47,743 bases of DNA from Deltaproteobacteria bacterium (GTDB lineage: Bacteria; Bdellovibrionota_C; UBA2361; SZUA-149; JADLFC01). Under the pieces are notes generated by a model. That model did no database searches. It was given only the letters and a program-made list of their open reading frames with translations, and had not been told where the DNA came from. The translations under genes were made by a program, and so were the position numbers. The DNA is taken from NCBI GenBank assembly GCA_020845775.1, contig JADLFC010000051.1, positions 1 through 47,743 on the forward strand, read 5' to 3'. Below, piece after piece: positions 16,141-32,955 of this stretch (the stretch's first letter is position 1; every line of letters begins with the position of its first letter).

Positions 16141-17457
16141 ATGAGCGACGATTATTTTCTTAATTTGCAGCCAGGTAGTATCGTCAACGGGCGATACGAG
16201 GTTGTGAAATGCCTCGGAACTGGGAGCATGGGGATGGTCTATGCCTGTCGCCATCGCGAACTTGCTGGCCACTTAGTGGCCATGAAAGTTCTTTTTTCGG
16301 AGGTGGCGCGCGATTCAGTTGCTGCGCAGCGCTTTCGCAATGAGATTGTGGCGTCCTATGGCGTTAGTCATCCCAATGTGGTTCGAGCCTATGAATACTT
16401 TAGAGATGGCGATTTAGTAGCTTTCACTATGGAGTACATTGGAGGCGGAGATTTAGCCGATCGCATAGCCTCTGAAAAGCAACTGCCTATTGACGAAGTG
16501 ATTCGCATATTGTCGCAGATGTGTTCTGGCGTTGAAGCCATCCATCAGGCTGGGATCGTTCATAGAGACTTAAAGCCGGAAAATATTCTCATAACTGCGC
16601 AGGGCGATGTTAAGATTACCGATTTTGGCATTGCGCGTTGCGGCACGGGGCCAAAGCTTACCGAACACGGGGGAGTTGTTGGAACTATCGATTACGTCAG
16701 TCCGGAATATTTGGAAAGTGGAGAGGTCGATGCGCGCTCTGATCTATATGCAATCGGTGTTATCGGTTACGAGATACTTACTGGAGAAACGCCGTTTAGG
16801 GGAGAGAGCGTCATTGAGACTATGACGCTAAGGCTAAGATCTGATGTGCCATCGGCGCGCAAACTCAGAAAAGACTGTCCACTTAAGCTTGATAGTATAA
16901 TCAGCAAAGCTATGGCGCGCGATCCGGGAGATCGCTATCAAACAGCTCATGATATGTTTCTGGATTTGCAGGCCCTTCTTCCGGACGATGTGAAGTTATT
17001 AGATCTTCAGCCTAAGCAATCTTCGCCTATGGAGCCGATCACTCTGCCGCTTTCAGAAGGGCGCGATGGAGTTGTGGCTTCGCATAATAAGACTTTGCGG
17101 CGGCGCGGTAGAGAGGATAGGCCCTCTTCAGAAAAGCGAGTGGATTTGAATCGCGTTTCTAAGTCGACTTCTGCCGATGCCATCAATCGCAATAGCCCAG
17201 CGACGTATGAGTTTCCACGAGAAAAAGCCGCTCTGAGTGTAAACATAGGAAGCTCTCACCTGTCAGCAGATAGAGTTAAGGAGTTATCGTCTCGCCTCTA
17301 TTCCGAGAAGGAAAGCATAATAAAAACGGCTATTTACTGGCTATTTGTGGTGCTTTTGGGTTTTGGATTAGGCATTTTGGGGCTTCGCTATTATGAACCG
17401 GAGCTTTTTGGCCAAGCGCCTCGCACTGCTGTTCCTAGTTATAGAGGAATTAAGTAG
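16141..17457 (+). CDS. Membrane-anchored Ser/Thr protein kinase (Hanks type)
   Basis: 438 residues. The kinase domain (~12-270) is complete: glycine loop GTGSMGMVY, ATP-binding Lys ~49 in VAMKVL, catalytic HRDLKPEN (~141-148), DFG (~161-163) and GTIDYVSPEYL. A basic, Ser-rich linker follows, then one transmembrane helix (~395-417) and a short ~20-residue external tail with no sensory domain. It probably phosphorylates proteins recognised by the FHA proteins at 15175, 29201 and 30764, and is opposed by the phosphatase at 14124. There is no clear ribosome site before the ATG. It is the last gene before a 346-base gap. Confidence 0.94.
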   Translation: MSDDYFLNLQPGSIVNGRYEVVKCLGTGSMGMVYACRHRELAGHLVAMKVLFSEVARDSVAAQRFRNEIVASYGVSHPNVVRAYEYFRDGDLVAFTMEYIGGGDLADRIASEKQLPIDEVIRILSQMCSGVEAIHQAGIVHRDLKPENILITAQGDVKITDFGIARCGTGPKLTEHGGVVGTIDYVSPEYLESGEVDARSDLYAIGVIGYEILTGETPFRGESVIETMTLRLRSDVPSARKLRKDCPLKLDSIISKAMARDPGDRYQTAHDMFLDLQALLPDDVKLLDLQPKQSSPMEPITLPLSEGRDGVVASHNKTLRRRGREDRPSSEKRVDLNRVSKSTSADAINRNSPATYEFPREKAALSVNIGSSHLSADRVKELSSRLYSEKESIIKTAIYWLFVVLLGFGLGILGLRYYEPELFGQAPRTAVPSYRGIK

Positions 17458-17803: not shown

Positions 17804-19123
17804 ATGAGAATTTTAATAATTGATAGATCTGCTGAGGGGCATGCTGTATGCGCAAAGCGCATAGAGTCTTTTAGTAGAAGTGATATAGAGATGCTCGATT
17901 TGCAGGTTAAGCTCGTTTTGGATCGAGATTACGAAGCAAATATACGTGAAGCTGATGTAGTAATTTTGTGTTCCGGTTTAGGAGATGGGATAAGTGCCCT
18001 TGCGAGGAGCATACTCGGTCTCATGCCATGGCTACACGTAATTATGTACGTCACTGACGAGGCCTATTCGGGAGGGGCATTTCGACTTGCTCATGCCGTG
18101 GGAGTTAGAAAGGTTCTTCCTGATAGCTCTTCTCCTTTAGATTTGTTGCAGGAATTAGTAGCTGTTTACAACGAGTTTCGCCGCGAGGGTCGGGCTCGAG
18201 AGGGACGTGTAATTTGCGTCACTCACGCAAAAGGTGGCACTGGGGCGACTAGTATTTGTGCGGCCTTAGCTGAGGTTTGTAGCGTCTATAGGCGAAGGAC
18301 AATGCTTTGGGATTTAGACGTCGAGACAAGGGATTTATGTAGATCTCTAACAGTAGGTGGTGCAGAAGCTAAGGTGGTTAGTAGCTGGGTAAATGGTTCG
18401 CGCGATATTTCCAGAGAAAGCCTGAGCGATGCTCTTATACCAGTCAGCCAGGACGTATCGGTTCTCATGCCCCCAGATGGAATGGCTGAGGCCATGGATC
18501 TGGTATGTCATACCGATGCAATGCTAATTGCGCAAAGAATACTGGATTTATCCCGAGTTATGCACGACGTGATTCTCATAGATCTTGCTGGAAGGATCGG
18601 TCCGGCTACTGGTGCCTTAATGCGAGTAGCTGATGAGGTGTTAATCGTTATCGACGACACCGTCCTAGGCCTCACGGCTTTAGATCTCTTTCTTAGCTAC
18701 GTAAAAATGCTCGTAATCGGCGGGGGAGAGAGAGTTAGTTTTGTCGTCAATGGCTATAGCGGCTCCTTACTTGCCGTGCCGCAGATAGAAGCGGAGCTTG
18801 AACCAGTGCACCGCTTGGGAGAGAGACCTTGGCGACTGCCACCGGTGCCAGTAGACCCAAAAGCCTCGCTTTGGCCTGGCAGCGGTAGAACACTCTATAG
18901 TATGGGACAAAAGGCCACCAGAAGCGCGCTTGAAGAGATTGCTTTGCAGTTAAATATTATCATGCCTTCCCAGGTTGGGCCGGAAGGTGAAAAAGGAGCC
19001 GCTGGTAGGAGGCGCAGTAACTCCTGGTGGGAGAGATTTCTAATGAAACCAGAAAGTGGAGGCAATGTAGGGGCCTTGTCCGGCCACCGAGCTGAGGAGG
19101 ATGAGCATAATTTGGTTTCTTAG
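17804..19123 (+). CDS. cpaE: CpaE/TadZ-like pilus localisation ATPase
   Basis: MinD/ParA-type ATPase of the Tad pilus (439 residues), which positions the pilus machine at the membrane. Residues ~1-120 form an atypical receiver domain without a normal phospho-Asp. The deviant Walker A KGGTGATS lies at ~142-149, LWDLDVETRDL follows, and a Walker B-like segment ILIDLAGRIG lies further on. The last ~60 residues are variable and charged. There is no good ribosome site at ATG 17804. It is separated from the pilin gene by about 300 bases containing a possible terminator. It is the first of the Tad genes. Confidence 0.88.
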   Translation: MRILIIDRSAEGHAVCAKRIESFSRSDIEMLDLQVKLVLDRDYEANIREADVVILCSGLGDGISALARSILGLMPWLHVIMYVTDEAYSGGAFRLAHAVGVRKVLPDSSSPLDLLQELVAVYNEFRREGRAREGRVICVTHAKGGTGATSICAALAEVCSVYRRRTMLWDLDVETRDLCRSLTVGGAEAKVVSSWVNGSRDISRESLSDALIPVSQDVSVLMPPDGMAEAMDLVCHTDAMLIAQRILDLSRVMHDVILIDLAGRIGPATGALMRVADEVLIVIDDTVLGLTALDLFLSYVKMLVIGGGERVSFVVNGYSGSLLAVPQIEAELEPVHRLGERPWRLPPVPVDPKASLWPGSGRTLYSMGQKATRSALEEIALQLNIIMPSQVGPEGEKGAAGRRRSNSWWERFLMKPESGGNVGALSGHRAEEDEHNLVS

Positions 19124-19316: not shown

Positions 19317-19423
19317 GATAAAAATAGGCGTGACTTAGAGCTGCGGGTATGTGATGTTTTAGAGTTGTGCGTAGCTGTAAGGCATGCTGATTAGTGTAAC
19401 GTAAACGTAAGGGTAGATGAGAA

Positions 19424-19615
19424 ATGGAAGAGAAAAATATTAATGAGTTAGAGGTCGTTGGACAGGAGGAGGAAAAGGGGGCAACTATGTTGGAGTATGC
19501 TCTATTGGCTGCTCTTATAGCTGTAGTGTGTATAGTTGCAATTACTTTCTTGGGAGAGCAGGCTTGCCAGGCGTTCTCGAGCATTGGAAGTAGTATAGAT
19601 CAAGCTAACCAATAA
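19424..19615 (+). CDS. flp: Flp-type pilin precursor
   Basis: 63-residue Flp/Fap family type IVb pilin. A 19-residue acidic leader ends in KG, followed by the cleavage-site pattern G/ATMLEYALLAAL with the conserved Glu at +5 and Tyr at +6. One hydrophobic helix covers most of the mature part, and the short tail has one Cys. It would be cut by a TadV/CpaA-type prepilin peptidase, which is not in the window, and assembled by the CpaF/TadB/TadC machine encoded downstream. Only one pilin gene is present. The large hairpin after it may raise its expression over the machine genes. Confidence 0.9.
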   Translation: MEEKNINELEVVGQEEEKGATMLEYALLAALIAVVCIVAITFLGEQACQAFSSIGSSIDQANQ

Positions 19616-19640
19616 AGACTGTAAGGCTTTGGCAAGTTGT

Positions 19641-19901: not shown

Positions 19902-20828
19902 ATGGCTGCACGCTTTGGAGCGAGCCCCGCTCAAGTATATGCCACTAAGGTTAGGTATCTGATTGGCGCTTTAATTGCCGTTATAGCAGTGCTTCTAATC
20001 TTAATCGTAGTTGTTGCTAATAACAATTCTGGAACACAGGACGTTTTAGTAAACGATCCGGCGGCAGTACAGGCAGCAGTTCCTCTTTCGCAAAATGTCG
20101 ATGTGCTGGTTGCAAATGTGAGAATAGAGCAGGGAACCCAGCTCATGCCGCATCTGTTCGTCGACCAGTCGTATAGTCCAGATAGGGTTCCAGCAGGTGC
20201 GATCCTCGCTAGAGACAAAGCCAATGTTATGGGCAAATTTGCTAAAAATATGGTTAATGCGAATTTTCCTATAATGCTAGAAGATGTTACCGAGTCGGCA
20301 GGTGGGTCGTTCATAGACAATATTCCGCCTGGGTATAGGGCTGTAACGATAACTGTAGATGCGCGTTCTGGCGTAGAAGGATGGGCGCGTCCAGGTACTC
20401 GGGTCGACATTTTGTTGACTTATACGGATAAGAAGTCGGGCGAGAAAGCTGTTGTAACTCTCGTATCTTTTACTCAAGTCTTATCAGTTGCTGGAATGAC
20501 TGCAAGCGATCAAGGCAACAAGCAGCCGGTTTCAGCTCAGGGAACAACTGTAACTCTCATGGTTACCGAAAAGGATTCTAAGCGCATAGAGCTTGCGCGT
20601 ACTATGGGAACGCTTAGTTTGTCGCTTAGAAGTTCTAGGGGTGGCCCAGATGATGAGCCTAGTGACAGGCCGGTTATCATTAAGCCCGGAAATATTATTA
20701 GTGACCAGGAAGACGCGCCAGAAGTGGAGCCCGCTGAAGGGGTCTTGTATCGCATGAACCCTAAAACTGGCAGGCAGGATAAGTATGTTTTGCGACGCGG
20801 TAGGTGGTCTTTGGATACTGAGGAGTAA
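19902..20828 (+). CDS. cpaB: Flp pilus assembly protein CpaB/RcpC
   Basis: 308 residues. One N-terminal transmembrane helix (~24-45) leads into a periplasmic SAF domain (VDVLVANVRIEQGTQL, about 65-130) and the RcpC region with GYRAVTITVDARSGVEGWARPGTRVDILLTY. CpaB proteins interact with the outer-membrane secretin of Tad systems; no secretin gene is seen in the window. AAGGGAG lies 7 bases before ATG 19902. The 286-base gap before it holds the large hairpin and a smaller CCAGC/GCTGG hairpin near 19776. Confidence 0.9.
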   Translation: MAARFGASPAQVYATKVRYLIGALIAVIAVLLILIVVVANNNSGTQDVLVNDPAAVQAAVPLSQNVDVLVANVRIEQGTQLMPHLFVDQSYSPDRVPAGAILARDKANVMGKFAKNMVNANFPIMLEDVTESAGGSFIDNIPPGYRAVTITVDARSGVEGWARPGTRVDILLTYTDKKSGEKAVVTLVSFTQVLSVAGMTASDQGNKQPVSAQGTTVTLMVTEKDSKRIELARTMGTLSLSLRSSRGGPDDEPSDRPVIIKPGNIISDQEDAPEVEPAEGVLYRMNPKTGRQDKYVLRRGRWSLDTEE

Positions 20829-20902
20829 TAATGTGGCGTTGGCTCCTCTAAACAGGCGCCTGTTTCTCGAGCGTTTATATAGAGGTTTGTAGGAGTTTTT
20901 AG

Positions 20903-22339
20903 ATGAAAGACGAAAGAGAGAATCTCATAGGTCTGTTCTCAACGCGGAGTGGTGCAGCCGAGGTCGAGGCCGAAGTTGATAGCAGTGAGCCGACGCGTGC
21001 TCGCAATCGTGCGCAGGCAACCAGAGATGTGGGGAAGGCATCGCTTTCACCTATTGCAAACTCCATCTTGAGAGAAGCGCGTCGGGAATTGGTTTCTGGG
21101 ATGGACGGCAACGAAGCCAAGGATGAACGCGAAATTCACGAAGAAGCAATAGCTAGTGCAATTGATTTAGTTTGTAGAAAACATGGGCATGTTATAAGTG
21201 ACGTAAATCGCGCTGAAATAATAGTCCACCTTAAGAGAGATCTTTTGGGGTGGGGGGTGCTGCAATCTCTGATTAATAATCCCGAAGTTACAGATATTCA
21301 TTGTTATGATTACCAAACCGTTGTTCTACAACGCGGTAAGGTGAGCGAATCTACTCCCATTCATTGGCCGAGCAAGGAAGCATATGCGTCCTTTATAGAT
21401 AGGATTCTCCTGCGCTTGGGGCGAAGTGTCTCGACGCAGCAGCATACTGTGGACTGTTCTTTCTCGGATGGAAAGCGAATATGCGTAATTCACGATAGCG
21501 TTTGTGGTTCGCGTGGACCCCTCATGACTATCCGCATTCCAAGAGTTTCTGAACCAACTCTCGAGAGTCTCGTTGCTTATCAGGTGGCCCCACCGCTAAT
21601 AGTAAATTATTTGGCCGCACTGGTTCGAACATGCGAACATACGTTTATGGTGTCCGGAGAGACTGGAACGGGTAAGACTACTCTAATGCGATGTTTAGGT
21701 ACGCAGTTTCGATCCGATGAGTCTATTGTTGGCGTAGAGGATACTCCTGAGCTAAACTACCAACATCCCTATTATCGCAGTTTGGTGTCGCGACCGGCAA
21801 ATACCGAAGGTGTAGGCGAGGTGACTTTGCAGGAGCACATTAAGACGACGTTGAGAATGTGTCCGTCCAGGGTAATTCTCGGCGAAATGCGCACTCCCGA
21901 AGCCGCGGAGGCTTTTTTGGAAAGCGCCCAAACCGGGCACTGCGGGATGTCGACTATTCATGCACGAAATGCGCGCGAGACGCTAACGCGTTTGGAGAGT
22001 TTATTGGGGCGGGCTCAGCGCGGCGTAAGTACTGACATATTGCGACAGCAGATCGCTCTAGCAGTTGATGTGGTAATCTGGCAGTGTCGCGAAAGGGTTT
22101 CGGGAAGAGTTCGCATGGCAGAGGTTATTGAAGTCGGCCATTTTGTGGAAGGGAATATTCAGGTTCGGCCTATGTTTAAATTAGTCGAACAAGGAGATAA
22201 TCCCAGGTGGCGCGTGGAATCGTGGTCTAGTAACTACGAAGATGTTTTGGAGAGAAATGGTATCGTTCTCGGAGAAGCCCCCGAATTTTTGGGCTTCTCT
22301 AATACTTCGGGATCCGCTGAAGTTGTAGCTCGTCGCTAA
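20903..22339 (+). CDS. cpaF: Tad pilus assembly ATPase CpaF/TadA
   Basis: Secretion ATPase of the GspE/VirB11 superfamily (478 residues) that powers pilus assembly. The N-terminal ~80 residues are variable and charged. Conserved parts: DLLGWGVLQSLINNPEVTDIH, Walker A GETGTGKTT (~251-259), Asp box EDTPEL, Walker B RVILGEMR and the His box GMSTIHARNA. All catalytic elements are intact. TAGGAG precedes the ATG by 8 bases. cpaF, tadB, tadC and sctV follow one another with gaps of 10-21 bases and form one transcription unit. Confidence 0.95.
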   Translation: MKDERENLIGLFSTRSGAAEVEAEVDSSEPTRARNRAQATRDVGKASLSPIANSILREARRELVSGMDGNEAKDEREIHEEAIASAIDLVCRKHGHVISDVNRAEIIVHLKRDLLGWGVLQSLINNPEVTDIHCYDYQTVVLQRGKVSESTPIHWPSKEAYASFIDRILLRLGRSVSTQQHTVDCSFSDGKRICVIHDSVCGSRGPLMTIRIPRVSEPTLESLVAYQVAPPLIVNYLAALVRTCEHTFMVSGETGTGKTTLMRCLGTQFRSDESIVGVEDTPELNYQHPYYRSLVSRPANTEGVGEVTLQEHIKTTLRMCPSRVILGEMRTPEAAEAFLESAQTGHCGMSTIHARNARETLTRLESLLGRAQRGVSTDILRQQIALAVDVVIWQCRERVSGRVRMAEVIEVGHFVEGNIQVRPMFKLVEQGDNPRWRVESWSSNYEDVLERNGIVLGEAPEFLGFSNTSGSAEVVARR

Positions 22340-22349
22340 AGTTTTACCG

Positions 22350-23375
22350 ATGGAATTAAGCACAGTTTTGATTTTTCTCGTCTTGTTGGTGGTGGTGATA
22401 GCTATTGCTGTCATCGTTGTTACTGTTGGTAGTGGTAACAAAACTGGTTTTCGCGAACAGTTAGCAGTTAGCGATTCATTGCGGGCGATGGTGGCCGCGC
22501 AGAGGGAAAGAGCTGCTCAGGGTTCTACGGGCATGTCGAATAGAGAGAAGAAAGGTAGGAACCTGGCTCTGGCTGCGGCGGCAGAAAGCGAGATAAAAGG
22601 AGAGCGCAGCTCGTCGGCCTCAAAAATTACTAGAATGGACTTGGCGAGGCGGCTTCATTATGGGAAGTGGAAGCTTACGCCGGTGCAATTTAGAGCTATT
22701 CAAGTGTGTTTGGCCCTAGGTTTGTTTGTGCCTACGTGGTTCATTTCGGGCAGAATGGTTCAGTTATTGGCGCTAGCACTGGGGCCAACTTTTCTGTCGT
22801 GGCTGCTGGAGCGCTCTATGATGAAGCGTTTTAAAGCTTTTGATGTGGATTATCCAGTTTTGCTGCTTCAGTATGTAAGTCTGCTTAAGACCGGCATGAG
22901 CACGATTACTGGTTTAGAAGCTGCGTCTAAAGGGCTTGATGAAGACTCTCTAGTAAGGGCCGAGGTGGCACTTTTAATTGAGCGACTTAGATTGGGACTT
23001 ACAGAAGAGCAGGCTATTAATGCTTTTGGAGAGGATATTGCACATCCGGAATTGGAGCTCTTTGTTCAGAGTTTGTTGTTGAGCAAGCGCGTCGGCGGTA
23101 CGCTATCGACTACGCTCGAGCGCCTAGCCAAACAAGTTCGCAAACGCCAACAATTTAGAGAGCAGGCTATCGCTGCAGTTGGCATGGAGAGAGGGTCTCT
23201 TTGGGCTATTGCGTGTATCATGACTGGGCTTATGCTCTATATCACTTATTTCCAGCCTGGGCTTGTCTTGCCCGCATTGACTCACCCACTGGGCAAATCG
23301 ATGTTTCAATTTGGATTCGTTACGATTATTATCGGGTTTTATTGGTCGCGCAGGGTAACCAATATAAAGGTGTAG
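22350..23375 (+). CDS. tadB: Tad inner-membrane platform protein TadB
   Basis: 341 residues with the GspF/T2SSF domain. An N-terminal helix (~2-27) is followed by a charged linker, a helix pair (~115-150), the cytoplasmic four-helix bundle (DYPVLLLQYVSLLKTGMS ... LLLSKRVGGTLSTTLERLAKQVRKR) and C-terminal helices. TadB and TadC form the platform on which CpaF acts. It starts 10 bases after cpaF. Normal length. Confidence 0.9.
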   Translation: MELSTVLIFLVLLVVVIAIAVIVVTVGSGNKTGFREQLAVSDSLRAMVAAQRERAAQGSTGMSNREKKGRNLALAAAAESEIKGERSSSASKITRMDLARRLHYGKWKLTPVQFRAIQVCLALGLFVPTWFISGRMVQLLALALGPTFLSWLLERSMMKRFKAFDVDYPVLLLQYVSLLKTGMSTITGLEAASKGLDEDSLVRAEVALLIERLRLGLTEEQAINAFGEDIAHPELELFVQSLLLSKRVGGTLSTTLERLAKQVRKRQQFREQAIAAVGMERGSLWAIACIMTGLMLYITYFQPGLVLPALTHPLGKSMFQFGFVTIIIGFYWSRRVTNIKV

Positions 23376-23391
23376 GAAGGAATTCGTCTAG

Positions 23392-24306
23392 ATGAGCGTA
23401 GTTAATCTGGCCATCTTAATTGCTGTCATTATAGCTGTTGCGGGGCTTAGTGCTATAGCGTTTGTCATTTTTGGTGGGCGCGCTGGCAAGAGTCGAACGG
23501 AAGTTCGGGAACTCATGAGTTCAGCTGGGCGAAGAGACAAGCACGGCAATAAGATTCAAATAGATATTGAGGACATAAAGAAGATAACTGGAGCCGCTAC
23601 GGCAAAAAAGAAGGAAGGAGATCTAAATACTAAATTGTTTAGGGCTGGCTTTTACGGAGATCGCGTGCGTCAGCGGTTTATTCAGTCTCAAGTAGTGCTT
23701 CCGGTGATTATGTCAATTGTTATGGCGTATGGTGCGTGGGCATGGCTAAAAATTCCCGTATTAGTTGTGCTTGGAATAATCATGGGAGCCTTTGTTGGCT
23801 ATGCCCTACCGATGTCGTGGCTAGAGCGAAAGATTCGTGCGCGCGAGGAGGATACTATGTATTACCTTCCATTAGTTATCGAGCAAGTAGCTATTGGAGT
23901 TAGCAGTGCATTAGATGTCGGTCCATGTATTGCTCAAATTGTGGAGATGGCTTACGAGCGCAATTCGCATAATCCAGTTACTGAGATGTTTATCCATGTG
24001 GAAAAGCTAATTCGCTCCGGATTGGGATTGTCGGAGGCTCTAGAGGAAGTTGGTTCCGCACATGGAATGAACGAGGTCAAACATGCCTTTATGTTTCTTG
24101 CTCAGTGCGCTAGGCACGGTGGTGAGCTTTCTAAGCAACTTCAGGAACTGGCCGATGCAGTGATGACGCAGCGGCAGATTCAAGTTGAAGGGCGCATTTC
24201 GGCACTCCCAGTTAAAGCAACTGGACCGCTAGCTGTGGTATTTACGGGCTTTTTTTCCTTACTCTTTGCGGGTATCGCAGTTAAAATCATGTCGGCATTT
24301 AGCTAA
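23392..24306 (+). CDS. tadC: Tad inner-membrane platform protein TadC
   Basis: 304 residues, second GspF-type platform protein. One N-terminal helix, a helix pair (~100-140), a T2SSF bundle with YYLPLVIEQVAIGVSSALDVG and FLAQCARHGGELSKQLQELADAV, and a C-terminal helix. GGAAGGA lies 10 bases upstream of ATG 23392. Its stop is only 21 bases before the SctV start, which joins the Tad set to the type III set. TadD-G or minor pseudopilins do not follow as they do in classical tad loci. Confidence 0.9.
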   Translation: MSVVNLAILIAVIIAVAGLSAIAFVIFGGRAGKSRTEVRELMSSAGRRDKHGNKIQIDIEDIKKITGAATAKKKEGDLNTKLFRAGFYGDRVRQRFIQSQVVLPVIMSIVMAYGAWAWLKIPVLVVLGIIMGAFVGYALPMSWLERKIRAREEDTMYYLPLVIEQVAIGVSSALDVGPCIAQIVEMAYERNSHNPVTEMFIHVEKLIRSGLGLSEALEEVGSAHGMNEVKHAFMFLAQCARHGGELSKQLQELADAVMTQRQIQVEGRISALPVKATGPLAVVFTGFFSLLFAGIAVKIMSAFS

Positions 24307-24327
24307 CGTCGGCATGGAGTGATTGCC

Positions 24328-26586
24328 ATGTTCTTCATTAAACACTTCTGGGAATTTATAGTCACAGTTTTTAGAAGTGTCGGCTTAAGCGGGGTGGCGA
24401 TAGGTACGTTAATCCTTGCGTTTGTAGTCCTCTTGTTGGTCCCCTTGCCTAGGCAATTACTCGACCTGCTGTTAATACTCAATTTTGTCGTTGCTATTGT
24501 TCTTTTGCTACTTGGGCTTTTTATACTCGAAGCTCGCGAGCTTTACTCCTTTCCATCGCTACTGCTGCTTACTACCTTGTTCCGCTTAAGTTTAAACGTA
24601 TCTACCACCCGCTTAATTCTCGTCCGAGGAGATGAGGGGCTGGGGGCCGCTGGTCAGGTTATCGAGGCTTTTGGCAGTTTAGTGGTTCAGCGAGACTTTA
24701 TAGTAGGAGCGATTATTTTTGGCATTATCGCCATTGTCAATTTTGTGGTGATCGCTAAAGGAGCGGCACGGGTGGCAGAAGTTGCTGCGCGCTTTGCCTT
24801 GGATGCGCTGCCGGGGAAACAATTGGCCATCGACGCTGAACTACGGGCGGGAAACTTGAGCAGGCAGGAAGCGGATATAAGGCGTAGCGAATTGGCAAGT
24901 GAATCGCAGTTTTACGGCTCCATGGACGGTGCGATGAAGTTTGTTCAGGGAGATGCTTTGGCAGGTTTCCTAATTGCCTTCATCAATTGCATAGGCGGTG
25001 TCAGCATTGGACTGTGGCGCGGCATGGATTTTTTTGCCGCAGTAAATACATTCGGGGTTCTCACAATAGGCGATGGATTGGTTAATATAATACCGTCGCT
25101 GCTAATTTCTGTATGCGCTGGCATAGTGGTAACTAGGGTTTCAGGGCGTCGAACCTCTTCCGTTAGTGATGACATTATTGAACAAGTATTAGCGGAACCG
25201 CGTGTGCTTGCAATCTCAGGGATTATGCTTTTATTGCTTAGCGTCGTCCCCGGTCTCCCGGCAATCCCGATGTCGGTTGTGGGGTTGGCTCTGATGTTTC
25301 TGTGGTTCAAACGCGATTCCCGTAAGGCACTGCTAAGCTCAGCTCAGGCTGCGCTTCCAGCGGGGATGCATCTAGCGCCTCAGCAGCTCCAACTCCGAGT
25401 CTTGCGAGCGGTCGAGCATGAGTATTTGCCGGCAGCAATATCTTCTGGTCATTCTTTAGAGCAGGGAGTAATGCTGGCGCTAGGACCTAGTCACGAGACT
25501 GTTAAGGCTCTTAGGCTGGAAGTAGATGCTGAGGTGTTAACCAGATATTTCGAAAGTTCTGCTAATCAGAACCTAAAAAAGTTTCAATCGTTTGTCGCTA
25601 GGATGCGACGAAATGTGTTTTTACAACGAGGTTTTGTCCTGCCGGACATTCAACTTATGTGTGGTGAGCAATTAACTAAGGGCGGATATGTAGTTCTAGT
25701 TCGAGAAACTCCTTGTGCCTCTGGAGAGATTCATGGAGATTTTTTATTTGTCAGAGTGAGTCCTTCGACCTTAGCGGCCCTTGGTATTCCAATTGTGAAT
25801 TCCGTTCGTCACCCGGTTACGCAATGTTCGGCTTGTTGGATAGATCGGCGGGCAGTTGGGATTAGCGCGTTAGAGAGAATTGGCGTGGAGCTTCTAGAGC
25901 CTTACGAGTACCTCGCGCTAGAGGTGCTAGCGGCCGCTTGTGGTAATATTGAAGAGTTATTTGGTTTGGGAGAAGTGCTAGATCTTTTGGAAGTAGTTAA
26001 GGGCGACGCGAAGGCACTTTATACAGAGGTTTTTGATAAGGAAGTCATATCGATGGCTGAGTTTACAGACTGCCTGCGCCGCTTGGTTCGGGAGCGAGTA
26101 AATATACGAGACTTAAAACTCATCCTCGAGGGAATAGTTGAGTTTTCGTCTCTGTCTTCGGCTGACGAAGAAAGACAGACTTGGCTTTCGATGCTCCACT
26201 CTTTTTTGCGCCAAGTGTTAAGTCGCGGTATTGTTGCAGATATTACGTCAAGAACTGGCAAATTTAGAGCATTTGTATTATCTGATGAAGTTGAAGAGGA
26301 ATTTCGCGCTATTATTCCTTCTTGGGAAAAGCGCCGCGCAGTTCCTCCGCTAAATCCTAATGTGGCGGCAGGGATGTATGGGGCAGCGAGTGCTTTGTTT
26401 AAGCCGGTTTTGGAGAGGGGTATCGCTCCTATTGTTCTCTTGTGTTCTGCCGATATTAGATCTATGGCCGATGAATTTTTTGGCCATAAGACGCTGGGGG
26501 GGCGCGAATGGTTGAGCACGTTAGCTTATGAAGAGCTAGACGGAGTTACTGCTCCAGAAATAGTTGGAGTTTTAAATCTCTCCTAG
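24328..26586 (+). CDS. sctV: Type III export apparatus protein SctV (FlhA/YscV family)
   Basis: About 752 residues, forming the export-gate ring through which type III substrates pass. The N-terminal half has about eight membrane helices with family signatures: LVPLPRQLLDLLLILNF, YSFPSLLLLTTLFRLSLNVSTTR and ALDALPGKQLAIDAELRAG. The C-terminal ~350 residues form the cytoplasmic ring domain. ATG 24328 has GGAGTG 7 bases upstream; GTG 24319 is less likely. It lies in one transcription unit with cpaF-tadB-tadC. It is full length with no sign of decay. I favour the secretion (Sct) over the flagellar form because no flagellar gene is present. Confidence 0.93.
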   Translation: MFFIKHFWEFIVTVFRSVGLSGVAIGTLILAFVVLLLVPLPRQLLDLLLILNFVVAIVLLLLGLFILEARELYSFPSLLLLTTLFRLSLNVSTTRLILVRGDEGLGAAGQVIEAFGSLVVQRDFIVGAIIFGIIAIVNFVVIAKGAARVAEVAARFALDALPGKQLAIDAELRAGNLSRQEADIRRSELASESQFYGSMDGAMKFVQGDALAGFLIAFINCIGGVSIGLWRGMDFFAAVNTFGVLTIGDGLVNIIPSLLISVCAGIVVTRVSGRRTSSVSDDIIEQVLAEPRVLAISGIMLLLLSVVPGLPAIPMSVVGLALMFLWFKRDSRKALLSSAQAALPAGMHLAPQQLQLRVLRAVEHEYLPAAISSGHSLEQGVMLALGPSHETVKALRLEVDAEVLTRYFESSANQNLKKFQSFVARMRRNVFLQRGFVLPDIQLMCGEQLTKGGYVVLVRETPCASGEIHGDFLFVRVSPSTLAALGIPIVNSVRHPVTQCSACWIDRRAVGISALERIGVELLEPYEYLALEVLAAACGNIEELFGLGEVLDLLEVVKGDAKALYTEVFDKEVISMAEFTDCLRRLVRERVNIRDLKLILEGIVEFSSLSSADEERQTWLSMLHSFLRQVLSRGIVADITSRTGKFRAFVLSDEVEEEFRAIIPSWEKRRAVPPLNPNVAAGMYGAASALFKPVLERGIAPIVLLCSADIRSMADEFFGHKTLGGREWLSTLAYEELDGVTAPEIVGVLNLS

Positions 26587-26609
26587 AGTTTTTTGTTGAA
26601 TATTATGTA

Positions 26610-29186
26610 ATGTTCTTTATGAGGGATGATTTGGAAGGTCATATTAACGAAAAAGCCGGTTCCGTTGCGAAGCCGGCTAATGCTTATGCTATTGCTGAGC
26701 GCGTAGACGAGCGATTTCAAATCATCGAGCACCTCTATACTGCCAGAACATCGGATGGATTTAAGGCGCTCGATAGGAGCGATAACTCGACAGTCCTCTT
26801 ATGGCTTTTGCGCTACGGTCTTGCGAGTACAAACAATGCCGTGCCGCTATACGTTAACCGATTAGAGCGCCTAAGAACACTTGAACTACCTTGTCCAAAG
26901 TTTCGCAATTATGGCGTAGATGCTTCGCGCAAAGCTTATTTGGCGACTGAATTTGTCGAAGGGACGCCTTGTTTAGAGGTAAAACTTACAGTCGAGCAAC
27001 AGCTGAAAGTGTTCCTAGATATTGTAAGTATAGTAGCGAAGCTGCATAAAGCCGGCATTGTGTTAAAGGATATTGGGGAAGACAGTTTTATCTTGGCGCC
27101 CGATGGAAAAGTCCTAACAGTTTCTCTAATAGGCGGATGTGAGGTTGCAGCAGATGGAACTACAATGCTGCCGCCGCCGAAAACGCTCTATTATTTATCG
27201 CCTGAACATCGCAGTGGTGTTGGTATCGTTGCGAGCACGGATGTATATGCACTCGGGGTATATGCCTATCGATTGTTTACAGGTCGATACGCCGTAGACG
27301 ACGTGAAAGAACTCATGACGGCCGTTGACGTTTGGGGAGCAGCTCAGGCTCCATCGAAAATTAAGCAGAATATACCCCCATGGATTGACGATATAGTAAA
27401 AAAATGCGTAAGTGCTAGGCCCTACGAGCGCTTCGGAGATGCGTCTCAGTTGTTGCAGGCGCTAAAACATCATCTCCATAGGGGCGGTGTAGATCTGGGA
27501 ACATCGCAGTCCTACGCCGATAGTAAGCTATCCTCTAGCAAGACAATTATGATTCGCCCCGCTACTCAGTCTACTGCTAGGCGGGATTTGCAAGCGCAGT
27601 CAAGACATAATACAGAGCCCGGAAAACAGGAGCGAAAACCATCAGTAATATTTTCGACTTTAGCGAGTAAAGGAATACGGCCACTGATAGGGGCCGCTGT
27701 CATTGCGATAGCAGTCTTTGGCGTGGCTCAAGTAGTGCGATTCCTCTCTGATGATAATCCCGATGTCGAAGTATCTACCGGTGCCTTGCTGTCGGCTGCG
27801 TATGTGGAGCCGTTGGCAGCGGAGTTAAAAGCACATTTAGCCCAAGTAGCTGATGGGGATACGCCAGTCGAAGACGGCCAAGCAACTCTGCAAAAAATTT
27901 CTGATAGCTCAGATCCGCTTAGTTTTGCAGCCTTGGTTGCAGCTATGAAAGCTTCTGATATCGCCACATTGCGGCCCTCGGCGCAGCTATTGGTGTTGAC
28001 GAGAATCGAGAAGGCAGGACTTCCATTGAGTTCCGACGTAGTGCTTCGATGGTTTCAGGGGCAAGAGAGGTCTGGTAGCGATTCGACTAAATTGCCATAT
28101 TACGACTCCTTGTTTGAGGCTTGCGATCCGGTATTGCCAGTAGAGAAGCGCCGCTTTGCCCTAAGCAAAGCGTTTAGTTTTGACAGACTTGTTGGTTTGC
28201 AGCTTGCTGCCGCACTTGCGCTCGATGATAAGAGTGGGCGTTTTGCTCCATCTCTGAGGCAGTTTATGTCGGATGAGGTAGATGAAGAGAACCTCATGGT
28301 TTTACACATTGGTGCGCTCATATTGGGAAACTCGCTTTTGGCGCAGCAATTTGAGGGCGAGGTAACGGCTTTATTGTCAGAACTTGCCCCGCGAGATTTG
28401 GCGTGGATTTTGGTAAAGCTTTCAGAGCGAGATAGTAACTTGCTTTTTAAAGTGGCCGAGGAAGCGCTAAAGCGCAATATCATCCCACCGTTTCAGGCCA
28501 TATTTTTGCGCACACTGGTGGAGACGGATCGGCAGTTCCTTCCGGCGCAGGTGCGAAAGACCTTAATACGCGGTGCAAGAGGCGAGCTACAAGAAGAGGA
28601 CTTGGTGTCTTTGGCGCGATGGATGTCTTTAGATTCTGAGCCAGTATTGTTAGCTATTTGCGCCATCTCTAGTAAAGAAAACATTGCGCTTGCGGCCTTT
28701 GATGCGTTGTCGTCGCGGACTCTAAACACTGAACCGGCTCGTGGGTTAATTAAGTGGATTAAGAAAAGCTATTGGGAATATCGCACGCGATTGGTAAAAG
28801 CTGTTGGAATTTTGGGTAGCAGTAAAATAGCCCAGGACGATCAGATTAACTATGCCTTTGATGTTCTGATGCCCTTTGCTCAAGACAGTTCTTTGCTGAA
28901 TTTACTAGTGGGAGCCGATATTGAATCCTTAATTGTAATTGCGCTCGAGCGTTTGGGAGAAATTTCTTCTCATGAAGATCTTTTGCCTCTGTTGCGTCAC
29001 GATAGCAAGCAAGTTCGGATTGGCGCTATTCGTGCACTTAAGGGGAGAAACGACCTCACGGTTCTTAGGGGGATTTCTCGCGCCTACGATAAGGAAAGAG
29101 ATGAAGATGTGCGAAGTTTATACGAGGAGCTACACTGGGTAACTAGGAAGGGCGACGCAGCACGTATGCTGTCAAATGGCGAGTAG
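26610..29186 (+). CDS. Membrane pseudokinase with helical-repeat C-terminal domain
   Basis: 858 residues. Residues ~20-290 have a Hanks-kinase fold (LATEFVEGTPCLEV, LYYLSPEHRSGVGIVASTDVYALGVYAYRLFTGRY), but the active site is lost. The catalytic loop HRDLKPEN reads VLKDIGEDS, DFG is replaced by LIGG, and the glycine loop is not recognisable. One helix (~357-376) follows. The remaining ~480 residues are Leu/Ala-rich and look like HEAT or other alpha-helical repeats, placed in the periplasm if the kinase is inside. It lies between sctV and the FHA/sctJ genes. A scaffold role linking phospho-signals to the export machine is inferred. Starts at 26610 or 26619. Confidence 0.82.
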   Translation: MFFMRDDLEGHINEKAGSVAKPANAYAIAERVDERFQIIEHLYTARTSDGFKALDRSDNSTVLLWLLRYGLASTNNAVPLYVNRLERLRTLELPCPKFRNYGVDASRKAYLATEFVEGTPCLEVKLTVEQQLKVFLDIVSIVAKLHKAGIVLKDIGEDSFILAPDGKVLTVSLIGGCEVAADGTTMLPPPKTLYYLSPEHRSGVGIVASTDVYALGVYAYRLFTGRYAVDDVKELMTAVDVWGAAQAPSKIKQNIPPWIDDIVKKCVSARPYERFGDASQLLQALKHHLHRGGVDLGTSQSYADSKLSSSKTIMIRPATQSTARRDLQAQSRHNTEPGKQERKPSVIFSTLASKGIRPLIGAAVIAIAVFGVAQVVRFLSDDNPDVEVSTGALLSAAYVEPLAAELKAHLAQVADGDTPVEDGQATLQKISDSSDPLSFAALVAAMKASDIATLRPSAQLLVLTRIEKAGLPLSSDVVLRWFQGQERSGSDSTKLPYYDSLFEACDPVLPVEKRRFALSKAFSFDRLVGLQLAAALALDDKSGRFAPSLRQFMSDEVDEENLMVLHIGALILGNSLLAQQFEGEVTALLSELAPRDLAWILVKLSERDSNLLFKVAEEALKRNIIPPFQAIFLRTLVETDRQFLPAQVRKTLIRGARGELQEEDLVSLARWMSLDSEPVLLAICAISSKENIALAAFDALSSRTLNTEPARGLIKWIKKSYWEYRTRLVKAVGILGSSKIAQDDQINYAFDVLMPFAQDSSLLNLLVGADIESLIVIALERLGEISSHEDLLPLLRHDSKQVRIGAIRALKGRNDLTVLRGISRAYDKERDEDVRSLYEELHWVTRKGDAARMLSNGE

Positions 29187-29200
29187 AGTAAACGCTTTTT

Positions 29201-30718
29201 ATGTTTGCACTTGAAATAAAATTTAATGATGGAATAAGCCAACCAGAGGTGTTGCTAGTAAGGCGACAGCATGTAGTCATTGGTGCGAGTGATTATGCAC
29301 ACGTTGTGATCGAGGGGTTTGCGGCTAATAGATGTGATCTGAAGCTGACTCGCGGTTTGGGACGGCAATTTCGTTGTCAGCCAATCATTAAATCATCTTC
29401 TAACAACAGCGGTCCACTGCCCTTTGCAGAAGGTGTTTATTCGGGCGATGTGGAACTGGAGTTAACGGAGGTATCGCTGCATATCACGGCACTAGATGTC
29501 GACTTGCAGCTGCAAAGTAACGAGTCTCCGGATAGAGCGGGGGTTCGCATTTTGCGCCAGGCACTTTCGCATGAGAGCCCGGTTTTTCCGGCCGTTAGCA
29601 TATTAGGGGCGGCTTCTGTTATGGTGTCTTTCCCGGAGGATGAACCGCTGATTATTGGACGATCTAGGAAGTGTGGATTAAGGCTGGATGCTGCGGATGT
29701 TTCTAGTGAGCAGGCTCGCATTGGTTTTGAACGCGGCGGCTTTTGGATAGAGGATCTTGGTAGTAAAAATGGCAGCTTCGTAGAGGGTCGGCGCGTCAAT
29801 GGTCGACAATCGCTCAAGCGAGATAGTCTGGTTACTATTGGTTCCGAGTTTGTTCTCCAAGTAATTAAGGATCAAGACGATCTAGCGGCGGTAAGCCAAG
29901 CTAAGGCTAGTGGGCGGCAGCTTAAGGAGGAGGCGCACCTCTACCCATGCCTAGTTTCTTCCTATGAGGCAGTTCAGCCTCGTCGGCTAGTGCTTTTACC
30001 TGGCTTGCGAGTGACCCTTGGAAGAGACCCTTGTAGTGATATATGGATAGAGGCGGCGCATGTGTCTCGCAATCATGCCGAGATTAATTACAGCGATACT
30101 GGAGTTCTATCGGTGACTGATCTTAGCAGTAACGGTACGTCGCTAAATGGTCAGGAGTTGCCTGCTGGTAAACCCGTCGAATTATCAACCTCGGAAACTT
30201 CGGTTCTCGACTTAGGAATGGGCGTGGAAATATCGCTGTGTTTTTCTGAGGCGGATGAGGCGAAAGTTAGTGGAGCGAGCCAATTACAATCTGCGGGCCT
30301 GCCGTGGACCGCGGTAAGTGGTGTTGCAGGGCGGCGCGGGGGCGATGGTTCCGATTCTATTGAAGTGGAAGACGATAGGGCGATTATGGGGCAGGTGTCT
30401 GGCGGAGAAAGCGGCGACGAACCGACTTTACAGAGGGCGCGAGGTGCATTTGAGGATTTAGTGCAACGAGCCCAGAGCGTTCGAGACGCTAATATTTCTG
30501 GTCTGGAGGCGAGGCAAAAGAGGGCCGGAGAGGTTTTGTTTTCTGGCGATAGTTCTAGCGCGGTCGATATGACTGATGGAATGTTGGAAGAGAATGCTAG
30601 CGCACAAGGTGGCATTGGAAGGCTTGGCCAGGTTTTTTTGTGGTTAGCCGTGGTTGTATTAGCGCTAGTGGTTGCTGAATTGTTGATTTGGTTCGTGGGT
30701 GGAAGTCGGTTAATATAA
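29201..30718 (+). CDS. Multi-FHA domain protein with C-terminal membrane helix
   Basis: 505 residues. Two clear FHA domains: one at ~140-225 (IIGRSRKCGLRL, then GSKNGSFVEGRRVN, with the usual His after Ser replaced by Gln) and one at ~260-345 (LGRDPCSDIWIEAAHVSRNHAEI, then LSSNGTSLNG, fully canonical). A degenerate FHA-like segment may occupy ~1-110 (VVIGASDYAHVVI). A charged linker leads to one helix at ~478-500, with almost nothing beyond. SctD of type III systems is also an FHA membrane protein, but it has a large periplasmic region that this protein lacks. It likely binds phosphothreonine on machine proteins. Confidence 0.88.
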   Translation: MFALEIKFNDGISQPEVLLVRRQHVVIGASDYAHVVIEGFAANRCDLKLTRGLGRQFRCQPIIKSSSNNSGPLPFAEGVYSGDVELELTEVSLHITALDVDLQLQSNESPDRAGVRILRQALSHESPVFPAVSILGAASVMVSFPEDEPLIIGRSRKCGLRLDAADVSSEQARIGFERGGFWIEDLGSKNGSFVEGRRVNGRQSLKRDSLVTIGSEFVLQVIKDQDDLAAVSQAKASGRQLKEEAHLYPCLVSSYEAVQPRRLVLLPGLRVTLGRDPCSDIWIEAAHVSRNHAEINYSDTGVLSVTDLSSNGTSLNGQELPAGKPVELSTSETSVLDLGMGVEISLCFSEADEAKVSGASQLQSAGLPWTAVSGVAGRRGGDGSDSIEVEDDRAIMGQVSGGESGDEPTLQRARGAFEDLVQRAQSVRDANISGLEARQKRAGEVLFSGDSSSAVDMTDGMLEENASAQGGIGRLGQVFLWLAVVVLALVVAELLIWFVGGSRLI

Positions 30719-30763: not shown

Positions 30764-31999
30764 ATGAGTATAAATGACACTGAGTTAACGTTTACGCGTT
30801 GTTCCGGGTGTCGGAGCTTGGTGCCAGCGTCTGCTAGTAGGTGTAGGATGTGTGGCGAGCTTCTTAGCAAGGAGGCTGAGTCTGCCGAAGGCAGTGTTGA
30901 GGAACAGCCCAATAGGTCTTCTAGCCGTGTTAGGCAACGGACGATGTCTTTGTCGTCTGACGATGCTAAGGCTATCGTCGACCGGGTTAAGTCCGCTTCG
31001 TCCATGAATCTAGCGAGTAGCGAAAAGCCCGCTGACAAGCCAACTGAGGCGTTTAGGTTGCGACCGCTAGATTTGGCCGCAAAAAAATCGCCATTAGCTA
31101 GCGTCTCAAAGGAGACATCGCAGTGGAAGAGTCCACTCGAATTGAGCGGGACAAAGGAGAAAGGGGAGGGTGCAAAAATTTCTCCGAGTAATATGTCAGC
31201 GGGATCCGCTGGAACTGCTACATCGTCTCCTGGCTTACAGGTGGAGGCAAAGCCTTCGACAGCTGAGGCAAGTGCTGTTCCTCAGTCGCAAAGCGTCGCC
31301 GAGGGCAAGCGCACCTCAGTGGATGTAGCGCCGAAAACCGCTGAGACTCAGTCTGGGCTTTCTGCCTCAACGCTCGCTAAGGGTGAGTTGTCGCTTAGAA
31401 AAAAGGCACGTAGGCGAAAGAAAAAGAAGGTTCAGGACGTGACCACCGCAACCAGTGCAGGAACGCTACACGTAGCAGCAAGGGAAGAGCCGGGATTGGA
31501 GAGAAAGAAGGAAAATCTGGAGCAACCTATGAGGACGCAAGGCGATGTATCTGTTCAGCCAAATGTCAAGAGTAATAAGGAGGCCCCTAAGAGTTCAGCT
31601 AAGAGCGTAGAAGCTACTGCCAAACCGCGAGAATTAGAGGAGGGTGGACTGTTTGGTTGGTTTGTGCGCTACGATGAGCAGGGTAGAGGAAGTGCTACTG
31701 AGATTCGAACTGGTCGATTTTTTGTTTCTGCTGAGAAGCTTAAGGACGTGGATTTGGTGATAGAGGACGAGACAATTTCTACACCTCATTGCGTCGTTAG
31801 GGCGAGCGTATCAGATGGATTAAGGGTTCAGGATTTACTTAGCGAGGGTGGGACTTTTGTTCGTCGTCGAAACGAGGGCAGGTTTTACGAATATTCAGAC
31901 GCCGTAACGCTAGAGCATGGCGATTGGCTGCGGTTTGGGGACTACGAGGTGCTTGTCTGTTTGGTGACCTTTGCAGATGCTGCTGCTAAGAAGGTATGA
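30764..31999 (+). CDS. Zinc-ribbon and FHA domain protein
   Basis: 411 residues. The N-terminus has a zinc-ribbon pattern, CSGCRSL then CRMCGE (residues ~11-30). A long low-complexity Ser/Ala/Lys-rich linker with a basic patch (KKARRRKKKKV) follows. The last ~110 residues form an FHA domain (IRTGRFFVS, DETISTPHCVVRA) that resembles the C-terminus of the protein at 15175, so the two are probably paralogues. GGAGG lies 9 bases before the ATG. Its stop overlaps the start of sctJ (ATGATGG), so it is translationally coupled to a core type III gene. Confidence 0.85.
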   Translation: MSINDTELTFTRCSGCRSLVPASASRCRMCGELLSKEAESAEGSVEEQPNRSSSRVRQRTMSLSSDDAKAIVDRVKSASSMNLASSEKPADKPTEAFRLRPLDLAAKKSPLASVSKETSQWKSPLELSGTKEKGEGAKISPSNMSAGSAGTATSSPGLQVEAKPSTAEASAVPQSQSVAEGKRTSVDVAPKTAETQSGLSASTLAKGELSLRKKARRRKKKKVQDVTTATSAGTLHVAAREEPGLERKKENLEQPMRTQGDVSVQPNVKSNKEAPKSSAKSVEATAKPRELEEGGLFGWFVRYDEQGRGSATEIRTGRFFVSAEKLKDVDLVIEDETISTPHCVVRASVSDGLRVQDLLSEGGTFVRRRNEGRFYEYSDAVTLEHGDWLRFGDYEVLVCLVTFADAAAKKV

Positions 32000-32955
32000 T
32001 GGCTTTTGTGGCGAAAAGGATAGTTGTTTGTGTTTTTTGTGTGTTGTTGCTGGGCCTTTGTGCCTGTCAGACGCAAGCACTGGTGCGCGGTCTTGGTCAA
32101 AGTGAGTCACTAGAGATTCTGGTAGCCTTAAACAGAGCTGGCATTGCTGCCGAACACATTCCGGAGTCAGCGCAGGGAACTACTAAGTACAGTATTGTCG
32201 TTGCTGCGCGCGATTATGTGCGCGCAGCAGAGGTTTTGCATGAATATGGATTGCCTAGGGATTCGACACCTAGTCTCGAGATATTGACCAAGCAAACAGG
32301 GTTTATCCCGAGCACTCAGGACATGGCGGCGATGCGTTTGTCGTTAGCGCAGAGTGCGCAAGTCGAACATTTACTTAGGGCCTTGCCGGGAGTTTTGGAT
32401 GTTAGAGTGGCTATCCGCTCCATTAATAAGAAAACACTCGTAGATTTCGGAGAATCAACGGACGTAGGCGCTTCGGTAGTAATTCGCTATGCATCTCAGT
32501 CTGACAAATTGCCGTTTCTGGTTGAGGATGTAAAGCGAATAGTTACAAACAGCGTAGTGGGGTTGCGGAGCGAAAATGTACTTCTTTCTCTTTCGCGAGT
32601 CGTTTTGCCGTCCGGTGACTCCATCGTTGCTTACAGCGAAGGAGATGTCGGAGGCGGAGGTAGCGGCAGACTTGTGCCGTTGGTAACTTTGTCGCCATTT
32701 GCGTTTCAGGTGCCTAGTTCGCAAAAAAAGGATGCTCAAAATCGTCTGGCAATGGTGGGCGTTGTCGCGATGCTGTCTGCTGGGGTAGTTGGCCTTTACC
32801 TTGGTCGATTGTTTGGGCATGGACGAAAGAAAGATTACAACACGGCGGGTATGGGATACGACGTTCGGTCACAGGATTTATTGATAGATTCGCCGCTTAA
32901 TAATTCTGAGAGGCCGCCAAGGTTACAAGGTGGCGAAGGGCCAAGAGCGCGTTAA
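31996..32955 (+). CDS. sctJ: Type III inner-membrane ring lipoprotein SctJ (YscJ/FliF family)
   Basis: 319 residues. A signal peptide ends in a lipobox with Cys at residue 24 (LCAC). Two ring-building motifs follow: the first with ALNRAGIAAEHI and AAEVLHEYGLPRDSTP, the second with LSLAQSAQVEHLLRALPGVLDVRVAI. A C-terminal helix (~250-272) and a charged tail end the protein. SctJ forms the inner-membrane ring with SctD; no sctD is seen. It overlaps the preceding FHA gene by 4 bases. Full length, with no decay. Confidence 0.9.
   Translation: MMAFVAKRIVVCVFCVLLLGLCACQTQALVRGLGQSESLEILVALNRAGIAAEHIPESAQGTTKYSIVVAARDYVRAAEVLHEYGLPRDSTPSLEILTKQTGFIPSTQDMAAMRLSLAQSAQVEHLLRALPGVLDVRVAIRSINKKTLVDFGESTDVGASVVIRYASQSDKLPFLVEDVKRIVTNSVVGLRSENVLLSLSRVVLPSGDSIVAYSEGDVGGGGSGRLVPLVTLSPFAFQVPSSQKKDAQNRLAMVGVVAMLSAGVVGLYLGRLFGHGRKKDYNTAGMGYDVRSQDLLIDSPLNNSERPPRLQGGEGPRAR

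What the first reader, a model, noticed from the sequence alone, without database searches (positions are those of the whole stretch)
23392..26586. TadC and SctV are joined in one transcription unit
Only 21 bases separate the tadC stop from the sctV ATG, with a ribosome site in the gap and no terminator. The gaps cpaF-tadB and tadB-tadC are also under 20 bases. The pilus motor/platform and the type III gate should be made together, which is strong physical evidence that they act together.
Basis: seen in the sequence. Interest (0 to 1): 0.72.

Follow-up and report, generated by a model that had tools for sequence, protein, structure and literature searches.

The report
Tad pilus and type III export operon
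Bacteria of one uncultured, formerly "delta-proteobacterial" phylum carry the motor, platform and pilin genes of a Tad pilus in one operon with a stripped-down, needleless type III export gate; two machines that a predatory myxobacterium encodes apart but uses together to kill prey are here a single inherited unit.

Summary
In detail: tadC ends at 24306, sctV starts at ATG 24328 (21-nt gap, GGAG 8 nt upstream, no terminator or promoter-like site), and the cpaF-tadB and tadB-tadC gaps are 10 and 16 nt. A 21-nt gap alone is ordinary. The strong evidence is comparative: TadC is directly followed by SctV, on the same strand, in 39 of the 41 genomes of this phylum where it can be judged (20 families). 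The Tad-linked SctVs form one clade, distinct from FlhA and from a second non-flagellar SctV. The one exception is a single family that split the pair secondarily. The gap itself varies from -14 to 318 nt, so order is conserved, not spacing.

No secretin of Tad or injectisome type was found in any of 46 genomes, no needle gene was seen, and SctU lacks its autocleavage domain. The nearest known case is the Myxococcus Kil pilus plus "needleless" T3SS*, encoded at separate loci. Best reading: a secretin-less Tad/T3SS* machine, a new variant of a known pairing. Co-transcription and physical contact remain inferred.

The parts
14124..15089 (+). PP2C-type protein phosphatase
   Evidence: Pfam PF00481 6.4e-16; same position in relatives L126, L133, L138
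15166..16116 (+). FHA-like protein (by position and the C-terminal sequence; no Pfam hit at 1e-3)
   Evidence: conserved neighbour of STPK1 in relatives
16141..17457 (+). Membrane Ser/Thr kinase STPK1, canonical motifs
   Evidence: Pkinase 7.1e-57; VAMK, HRDLK and DFG present
17804..19123 (+). TadZ/CpaE-like ATPase
   Evidence: AAA_31 2.4e-10; CpaE-homologue model 7.2e-13, below cutoff; 52-77% identity across the phylum
19424..19615 (+). Flp major pilin (63 aa), only Flp hit in the genome
   Evidence: PF04964 4.8e-11, above cutoff; sole hit in G000; in the TadZ-CpaB gap of 19 of 22 relatives
19902..20828 (+). CpaB/RcpC periplasmic alignment protein
   Evidence: PF16976 1.5e-23; TIGR03177 above cutoff
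20903..22339 (+). CpaF/TadA motor ATPase
   Evidence: T2SSE 3e-33; best PDB relatives are CpaF structures; Walker A GETGTGKTT invariant
22350..23375 (+). TadB platform protein
   Evidence: T2SSF 1.3e-12
23392..24306 (+). TadC platform protein
   Evidence: T2SSF 2.9e-10
24307..24327 (+). tadC-sctV gap, 21 nt, with GGAG at 24316-24319
24328..26586 (+). SctV type III export gate (752 aa)
   Evidence: FHIPEP 2.5e-173; Tad-linked clade in tree
26610..29186 (+). Membrane pseudokinase with a C-terminal HEAT-like part, directly after SctV
   Evidence: Pkinase 2.6e-11, HEAT_2 weak; no VAxK, HRD or DFG in any of the copies scanned and a TM near residue 360
29201..30718 (+). Tail-anchored double-FHA protein with SctD cytoplasmic-domain similarity, no periplasmic domain
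   Evidence: FHA 7e-30, Yop-YscD_cpl 2.6e-14; single TM at residues 478-496 of 505
30764..31999 (+). FHA protein 2 (soluble)
   Evidence: FHA 3.7e-07; no TM
31996..32955 (+). SctJ ring lipoprotein
   Evidence: YscJ_FliF 7.3e-14; III_secr_YscJ 109 bits against fliF 19 bits
32979..33209 (+). Unannotated 76-aa gene conserved at this place in the order
   Evidence: homologues in L021, L032, L037, L038, L044, L047
33244..33729 (+). SctO/FliJ-like coiled coil
   Evidence: FliJ 3.5e-06 and YscO-like 1.1e-04, both just below cutoff
33760..34818 (+). SctQ sorting-platform protein
   Evidence: FliMN_C 2.3e-12
34824..35552 (+). SctR
   Evidence: FliP 3.6e-48
35571..35825 (+). SctS
   Evidence: Bac_export_3 9.9e-14
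35830..36681 (+). SctT (mechanical ORF starts at GTG 35755; ATG 35830 more likely)
   Evidence: Bac_export_1 7.4e-07
36718..37545 (+). SctU without the NPTH autocleavage domain (275 aa)
   Evidence: Bac_export_2 profile 1-237 of 335; no NPTH in 5 of 5 homologues, present in FlhB
37605..38039 (+). Conserved small protein of unknown function
   Evidence: no Pfam hit; same position in L143, L145, L146
38045..38434 (+). TPR protein, chaperone-like
   Evidence: TPR_19 1.4e-06

Best explanation
The region encodes one envelope machine built from two known modules. Module 1 is a Tad (type IVc) pilus engine: TadZ, Flp pilin, CpaB, CpaF motor, and TadB/TadC platform. Module 2 is a needleless, non-flagellar type III export gate: SctV and SctRSTU with SctJ, SctQ and SctO. 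A membrane pseudokinase with a HEAT-like part, an active-looking Ser/Thr kinase, a PP2C phosphatase and FHA proteins are encoded between and beside them as likely assembly switches. Shown by sequence: the modules share one gene string, the junction most simply arose once in an ancestor of the phylum and was kept through at least 20 families, and the T3SS lacks a secretin, a recognisable needle and the SctU switch domain. Inferred: phospho-threonine signalling assembles the pilus engine; the engine positions the type III gate; the gate passes proteins across the inner membrane; and the short Flp filament or its tip carries or pushes them outward, as proposed for Kil and T3SS* at the prey contact of Myxococcus. 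Because no Tad-type secretin was found in the phylum, the filament must either borrow the PilQ or GspD secretin or another pore, or act as a periplasmic piston.
For: TadC directly followed by SctV on one strand in 39 of 41 decidable genomes, 20 families (32 read directly; 7 from coordinates). Tad-linked SctV is one clade with support 99 (f11 nested inside), apart from FlhA (100) and SctV3 (99). Neighbours downstream of the STPK2 gene differ between the window's order and the other families, so general synteny is not the reason. Two genomes lack both genes together (G022, 89% complete; G044, 70%). The genome's only Flp pilin lies in this operon although three Tad-type motor clusters exist. Zero to three, typically two, secretins per genome in 46 genomes, with GspD- and PilQ-length frames apart from some short fragments. 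SctU truncated before NPTH. SctL-SctN pairs exist elsewhere. Precedent: Kil assembly recruits T3SS*, and Tips 1-3 need T3SS* to kill (PMC12075869).
Against: No expression, interaction or phenotype data. Gaps of 120-318 nt in several relatives allow separate promoters. Family f11 keeps both modules but at separate loci (L123/L124 against L054/L055), so physical linkage is not essential. In G003 the SctV at this position is extremely diverged (574 aa, branch length 10) while CpaF is 69% identical to the window's, so the gate can decay while the motor persists. Which SctL-SctN pair serves this gate is not settled, and minor pilins lie elsewhere.
Confidence: 0.62

Rival explanations
1. Shared regulation only: the Tad pilus and the type III gate are made at the same time for the same occasion (for example cell contact) but work as two separate machines that never touch.
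For: Co-orientation and short gaps give co-expression without needing contact. Family f11 keeps both modules at separate loci. Myxococcus encodes them at separate loci, and pilus polymerisation still occurs without T3SS* (PMC12075869).
Against: Linkage specifically of TadC to SctV was retained while most other T3SS genes lie elsewhere in the other orders, which co-regulation of the whole T3SS would not predict. In Myxococcus T3SS* cannot reach the contact site without Kil.
Confidence: 0.25
2. The T3SS part is a decaying relic carried along next to a working Tad pilus.
For: Secretin absent and no needle or translocon gene recognised in the window, SctU truncated, SctV very diverged in G003 and fast in G002, G006 and G007.
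Against: Full SctJQRSTUV open frames; a Tad-linked SctV in 20 families with intact frames of about 700 aa; conserved SctV-pseudokinase pairing even in f11; the same set of losses describes the functional Myxococcus T3SS* (PMC10433427, PMC3459982).
Confidence: 0.08
3. Chance neighbours or an assembly join.
For: None beyond this one genome being a fragmented draft (189 contigs).
Against: Same junction in 39 genomes and in a separately named public contig (L082, CAIXKI010000040.1); one clade of SctV.
Confidence: 0.01

Closest known systems
Myxococcus xanthus Kil (Tad-like) pilus together with needleless T3SS* (MXAN_3102-3108, MXAN_4648-4661; MXAN_2434-2464)
   Same: Tad motor/platform/CpaB/Flp pilin plus a type III gate with SctJ, SctQ and SctRSTUV but no secretin, needle or translocon of its own; FHA proteins; a second non-flagellar T3SS in the same genome
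   Different: In Myxococcus the modules are at three separate loci and Kil has its own secretin KilC; here they share one operon and no Tad-type secretin was found in the phylum. SctU lacks the NPTH domain here (not checked in Myxococcus). SctL and SctN are inside the Myxococcus T3SS* cluster and elsewhere here.
Myxo-group non-flagellar T3SS, short and long loci (Abby and Rocha 2012, PMC3459982)
   Same: Early-type NF-T3SS without secretin or SctF; two variants in some genomes; vertical inheritance
   Different: No Tad linkage was described for them in the parts read, and the SctD-like protein here has no periplasmic domain
Canonical Tad/Flp pilus loci (Caulobacter cpa, Aggregatibacter tad)
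   Same: TadZ, Flp, CpaB/RcpC, CpaF/TadA, TadB, TadC together in one cluster
   Different: No RcpA/CpaC secretin; TadE-type minor pilins and the single prepilin peptidase lie at other loci; a T3SS gate follows TadC
Rhizobial T3SS with a Tad-derived secretin (RhcC2)
   Same: Earlier known exchange of a part between Tad and T3SS (PMC3459982)
   Different: There one outer-membrane part was borrowed; here the motor and platform stand beside the gate and the secretin is missing

Membership tests
Tad (type IVc) pilus | CpaF/TadA-type motor ATPase with TadB and TadC | tested here: met
Tad (type IVc) pilus | Flp pilin | tested here: met
   PF04964 above cutoff at 19424-19615
Tad (type IVc) pilus | TadZ and CpaB/RcpC | tested here: met
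Tad (type IVc) pilus | RcpA/CpaC outer-membrane secretin | tested here: not met
   PF00263 finds only two secretins in G000 (one beside GspE, one PilQ-like beside an aroK-like gene) and zero to three in each of the other 45 genomes; secretin-less or secretin-borrowing
Tad (type IVc) pilus | Prepilin peptidase | tested here: inconclusive
   One PF01478 protein in the genome, at C116, not in this cluster; presumably shared
Needleless NF-T3SS (T3SS*, Myxo type) | Export gate SctRSTUV with SctJ and SctQ | tested here: met
Needleless NF-T3SS (T3SS*, Myxo type) | No secretin of its own, no SctF needle or translocon in the cluster | tested here: met
   No gene of these kinds among Pfam results for the window; no extra secretin genome-wide. 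Needle and translocon were not searched genome-wide
Needleless NF-T3SS (T3SS*, Myxo type) | SctN ATPase with SctL | tested here: inconclusive
   Two SctL-SctN pairs in the genome (C116, C16) besides FliI; assignment to this gate unknown
Needleless NF-T3SS (T3SS*, Myxo type) | Shared ancestry with the Myxococcus T3SS* clade | not tested
Canonical injectisome | Secretin, needle and SctU with NPTH autocleavage | tested here: not met
   Secretin and NPTH tested and absent; needle only looked for in the window
Flagellar export apparatus | FlhA/FlhB of the flagellum | tested here: not met
   FlhA-FlhB are at C90; Tad-linked SctV is outside the FlhA clade

The most novel reading that the evidence does not exclude
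A single hybrid nanomachine in which the Tad motor and platform and the type III gate share one inner-membrane base, so that the Tad motor (CpaF) works a short Flp pseudopilus as the replacement of the needle and the pseudokinase HEAT part takes the place of the missing ring and secretin contacts.
Probability: 0.2. Interest if true: 0.88.

Novelty: new variant of a known kind. Interest (0 to 1): 0.62.

Why it matters
How a needleless T3SS can deliver anything, and how the Kil pilus and T3SS* talk to each other, are open questions in Myxococcus. A phylum where the two are a single vertically inherited operon argues that the pairing is wider than predatory myxobacteria (a review limits the co-occurrence of T3SS* and Tad to Cystobacterineae, PMC10849154; a later paper adds bradymonads, PMC11509652). 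It also points at the exact proteins to test for contact: CpaF, TadB and TadC with SctV and the pseudokinase.

Tried and rejected
A sigma-54 promoter before flp was considered because NtrC-type regulators are encoded nearby: hits in the window are at chance level (31 against a mean of 24.6), and only one relative has a perfect site; rejected as unsupported. The conserved-gap idea was rejected: -14 to 318 nt. A degenerate relic and an assembly join were considered (see rivals). The genome-contig scan with CpaF gave only three near relatives with uninformative names, so the phylum could not be named and Myxococcus loci could not be fetched; a literature search for the guess UBA10199 returned nothing. 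Thiery et al. 2022 is not held. A CpaF search of 337 genomes outside the phylum found no match at 1e-120, but that threshold would miss KilF-like relatives, so it does not show absence elsewhere.

Full report
Observation. The coordinates are right. tadC ends with TAA at 24306, sctV starts with ATG at 24328, and the 21 nt between them hold GGAG 8 nt before the ATG. cpaF-tadB is 10 nt and tadB-tadC 16 nt. No terminator-like or + strand promoter-like site falls in the gap, and across 17000-33500 such sites are no more frequent than in shuffled sequence. Pfam confirms the identities. From cpaB (19902) to the TPR gene (ending 38434) all genes are on the + strand with small gaps, once a 76-aa gene at 32979-33209, conserved in the order, is counted.

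What surrounds it. It is the only Flp hit in the 2.57-Mb genome, although two further Tad-type motor clusters exist on contigs C46 and C25. Downstream of SctV come a membrane protein with a degenerate kinase domain and a HEAT-like C-terminal part, a tail-anchored double-FHA protein resembling the cytoplasmic part of SctD, another FHA protein, SctJ, SctO-like, SctQ, SctR, SctS, SctT, SctU, a conserved small protein and a TPR protein.

Is it more than chance? The distance is not special: across relatives the TadC-SctV gap runs from -14 to 318 nt. The order is. The held phylum comprises 46 genomes in one class. In 32 genomes the genes were read directly and TadC is followed by SctV on the same strand. 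In 7 more the CpaF and SctV coordinates lie about 2.04-2.12 kb apart on one strand, the room taken by TadB and TadC. Two genomes of family f11 keep both modules at separate loci (L123/L124 against L054/L055). Three cannot be judged because of contig ends or incompleteness (G004, G011, G040). Two lack both (G022, G044). That is 39 of 41 decidable genomes, in 20 families. A tree of 55 SctV/FlhA proteins puts all Tad-linked SctVs, with the f11 ones nested inside, on one side of a branch with support 99, apart from FlhA (100) and from a second non-flagellar SctV present in the same genomes (99). The simplest history is one junction in an ancestor of the phylum and one later split. The tree used the quick method, and some rows are long (L122, L038, L040), so fine placements are not trusted. 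Genes downstream of the pseudokinase differ between the window's order and other families (FHA, SctJ, SctQ and so on against unrelated genes), so the junction is not a by-product of general synteny.

What the machine has and lacks. The Tad side has motor, platform, TadZ, CpaB and pilin; the best solved relatives of CpaF are CpaF structures. No Tad-type secretin was found: PF00263 gives two secretins in this genome, one beside GspE and one beside an aroK-like gene as PilQ usually is, and zero to three, typically two, in each other genome of the phylum. One prepilin peptidase exists, elsewhere; TadE-type minor pilins are on C97, C76, C28 and C133. The type III side has a full gate. SctU ends before the NPTH autocleavage site in all five members of the order that were read; the other non-flagellar SctU of the genome is also short, while FlhB has NPTH. 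Separate small FlhB-C-like proteins occur (C90, C127). Two SctL-SctN pairs exist elsewhere besides FliI; which of them serves this gate is unknown. The SctD-like FHA protein has its only membrane span at the very C-terminus, so it has no periplasmic ring domain. The pseudokinase lacks VAxK, HRD and DFG in every copy scanned, whereas STPK1 has them, apart from a truncated copy (L043) and two variants of the first motif.

How it most likely works. Myxococcus xanthus offers the precedent: its Tad-like Kil pilus assembles at the prey contact and recruits a needleless T3SS*; Tips 1-3 need T3SS* to kill, and lysis needs T3SS* (PMC12075869). There the genes sit at three separate loci (PMC10433427). 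Here the same two modules are one operon. The proposed working order is: phosphorylation signalling (STPK1, PP2C, FHA proteins), assembly of the Tad engine, placement of the type III gate beside it, export of unknown proteins across the inner membrane, and transport outward on or by the Flp filament. Steps after gene co-location are inference. With no Tad-type secretin found in the phylum, the outer membrane step must use PilQ, GspD or another pore, or be absent. A predatory role is possible by analogy but nothing here shows it.

Comparison and novelty. It is a Tad pilus engine by the tested motor, platform, TadZ, CpaB and pilin features and departs from the definition in lacking RcpA/CpaC. 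A review restricts T3SS*-Tad co-occurrence to Cystobacterineae (PMC10849154), and a later paper reports both in bradymonads (PMC11509652). Literature searches found no report of Tad and T3SS genes in one operon, though the library is open-access only. Verdict: a new variant of a known pairing, well supported as gene arrangement, moderately supported as a joint machine.

Noticed in passing
   Followed up: yes
window 32979-33209: Unannotated 76-aa gene between SctJ and SctO, conserved in the order (consensus near RFRALxxREQAVVALxVLLDGHDA); function unknown, possibly a T3SS accessory protein.
   Followed up: partly
window 26610-29186 and relatives: Membrane pseudokinase with a HEAT-like C-terminal part follows SctV in almost every relative, even where Tad genes have moved away (L054, L055).
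   Followed up: partly
L041 (G000:C105) and L135 (G000:C127): A second non-flagellar T3SS (own sigma factor, SctJ, SctQ, SctV; SctRSTU on another contig) with a truncated SctU; a separate 97-aa FlhB-C-like gene lies about 3 kb away on C127.
   Followed up: partly
L127-L131 (G033, G041, G021, G016, G032): Sister Tad clusters with a closely related CpaF, probable TadE/TadG-like pilin genes and no SctV: a natural control for what the T3SS-linked copy gained.
   Followed up: partly
L122 (G003:C33): At the SctV position a 574-aa protein so diverged that it barely matches SctV, while CpaF beside it is 69% identical to the window's.
   Followed up: partly
L067 15697-19774 (G000:C116): SctL-SctN followed by two proteins with coiled-coil-like sequence and unknown function (370 and 332 aa).
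   Followed up: no
G000:C133:13302-13427: A TadE-type segment inside a 1352-aa open frame, possibly a large KilN-like pilus tip protein.
   Followed up: no
window 46850-47488, - strand: Small helix-turn-helix gene beside a gene that looks like a HigB/RelE-type toxin, by eye a toxin-antitoxin pair.
   Followed up: no
G000:C159 and C160: Near-identical contigs each carrying the same ATP synthase-like pair; a likely assembly duplicate.
   Followed up: no
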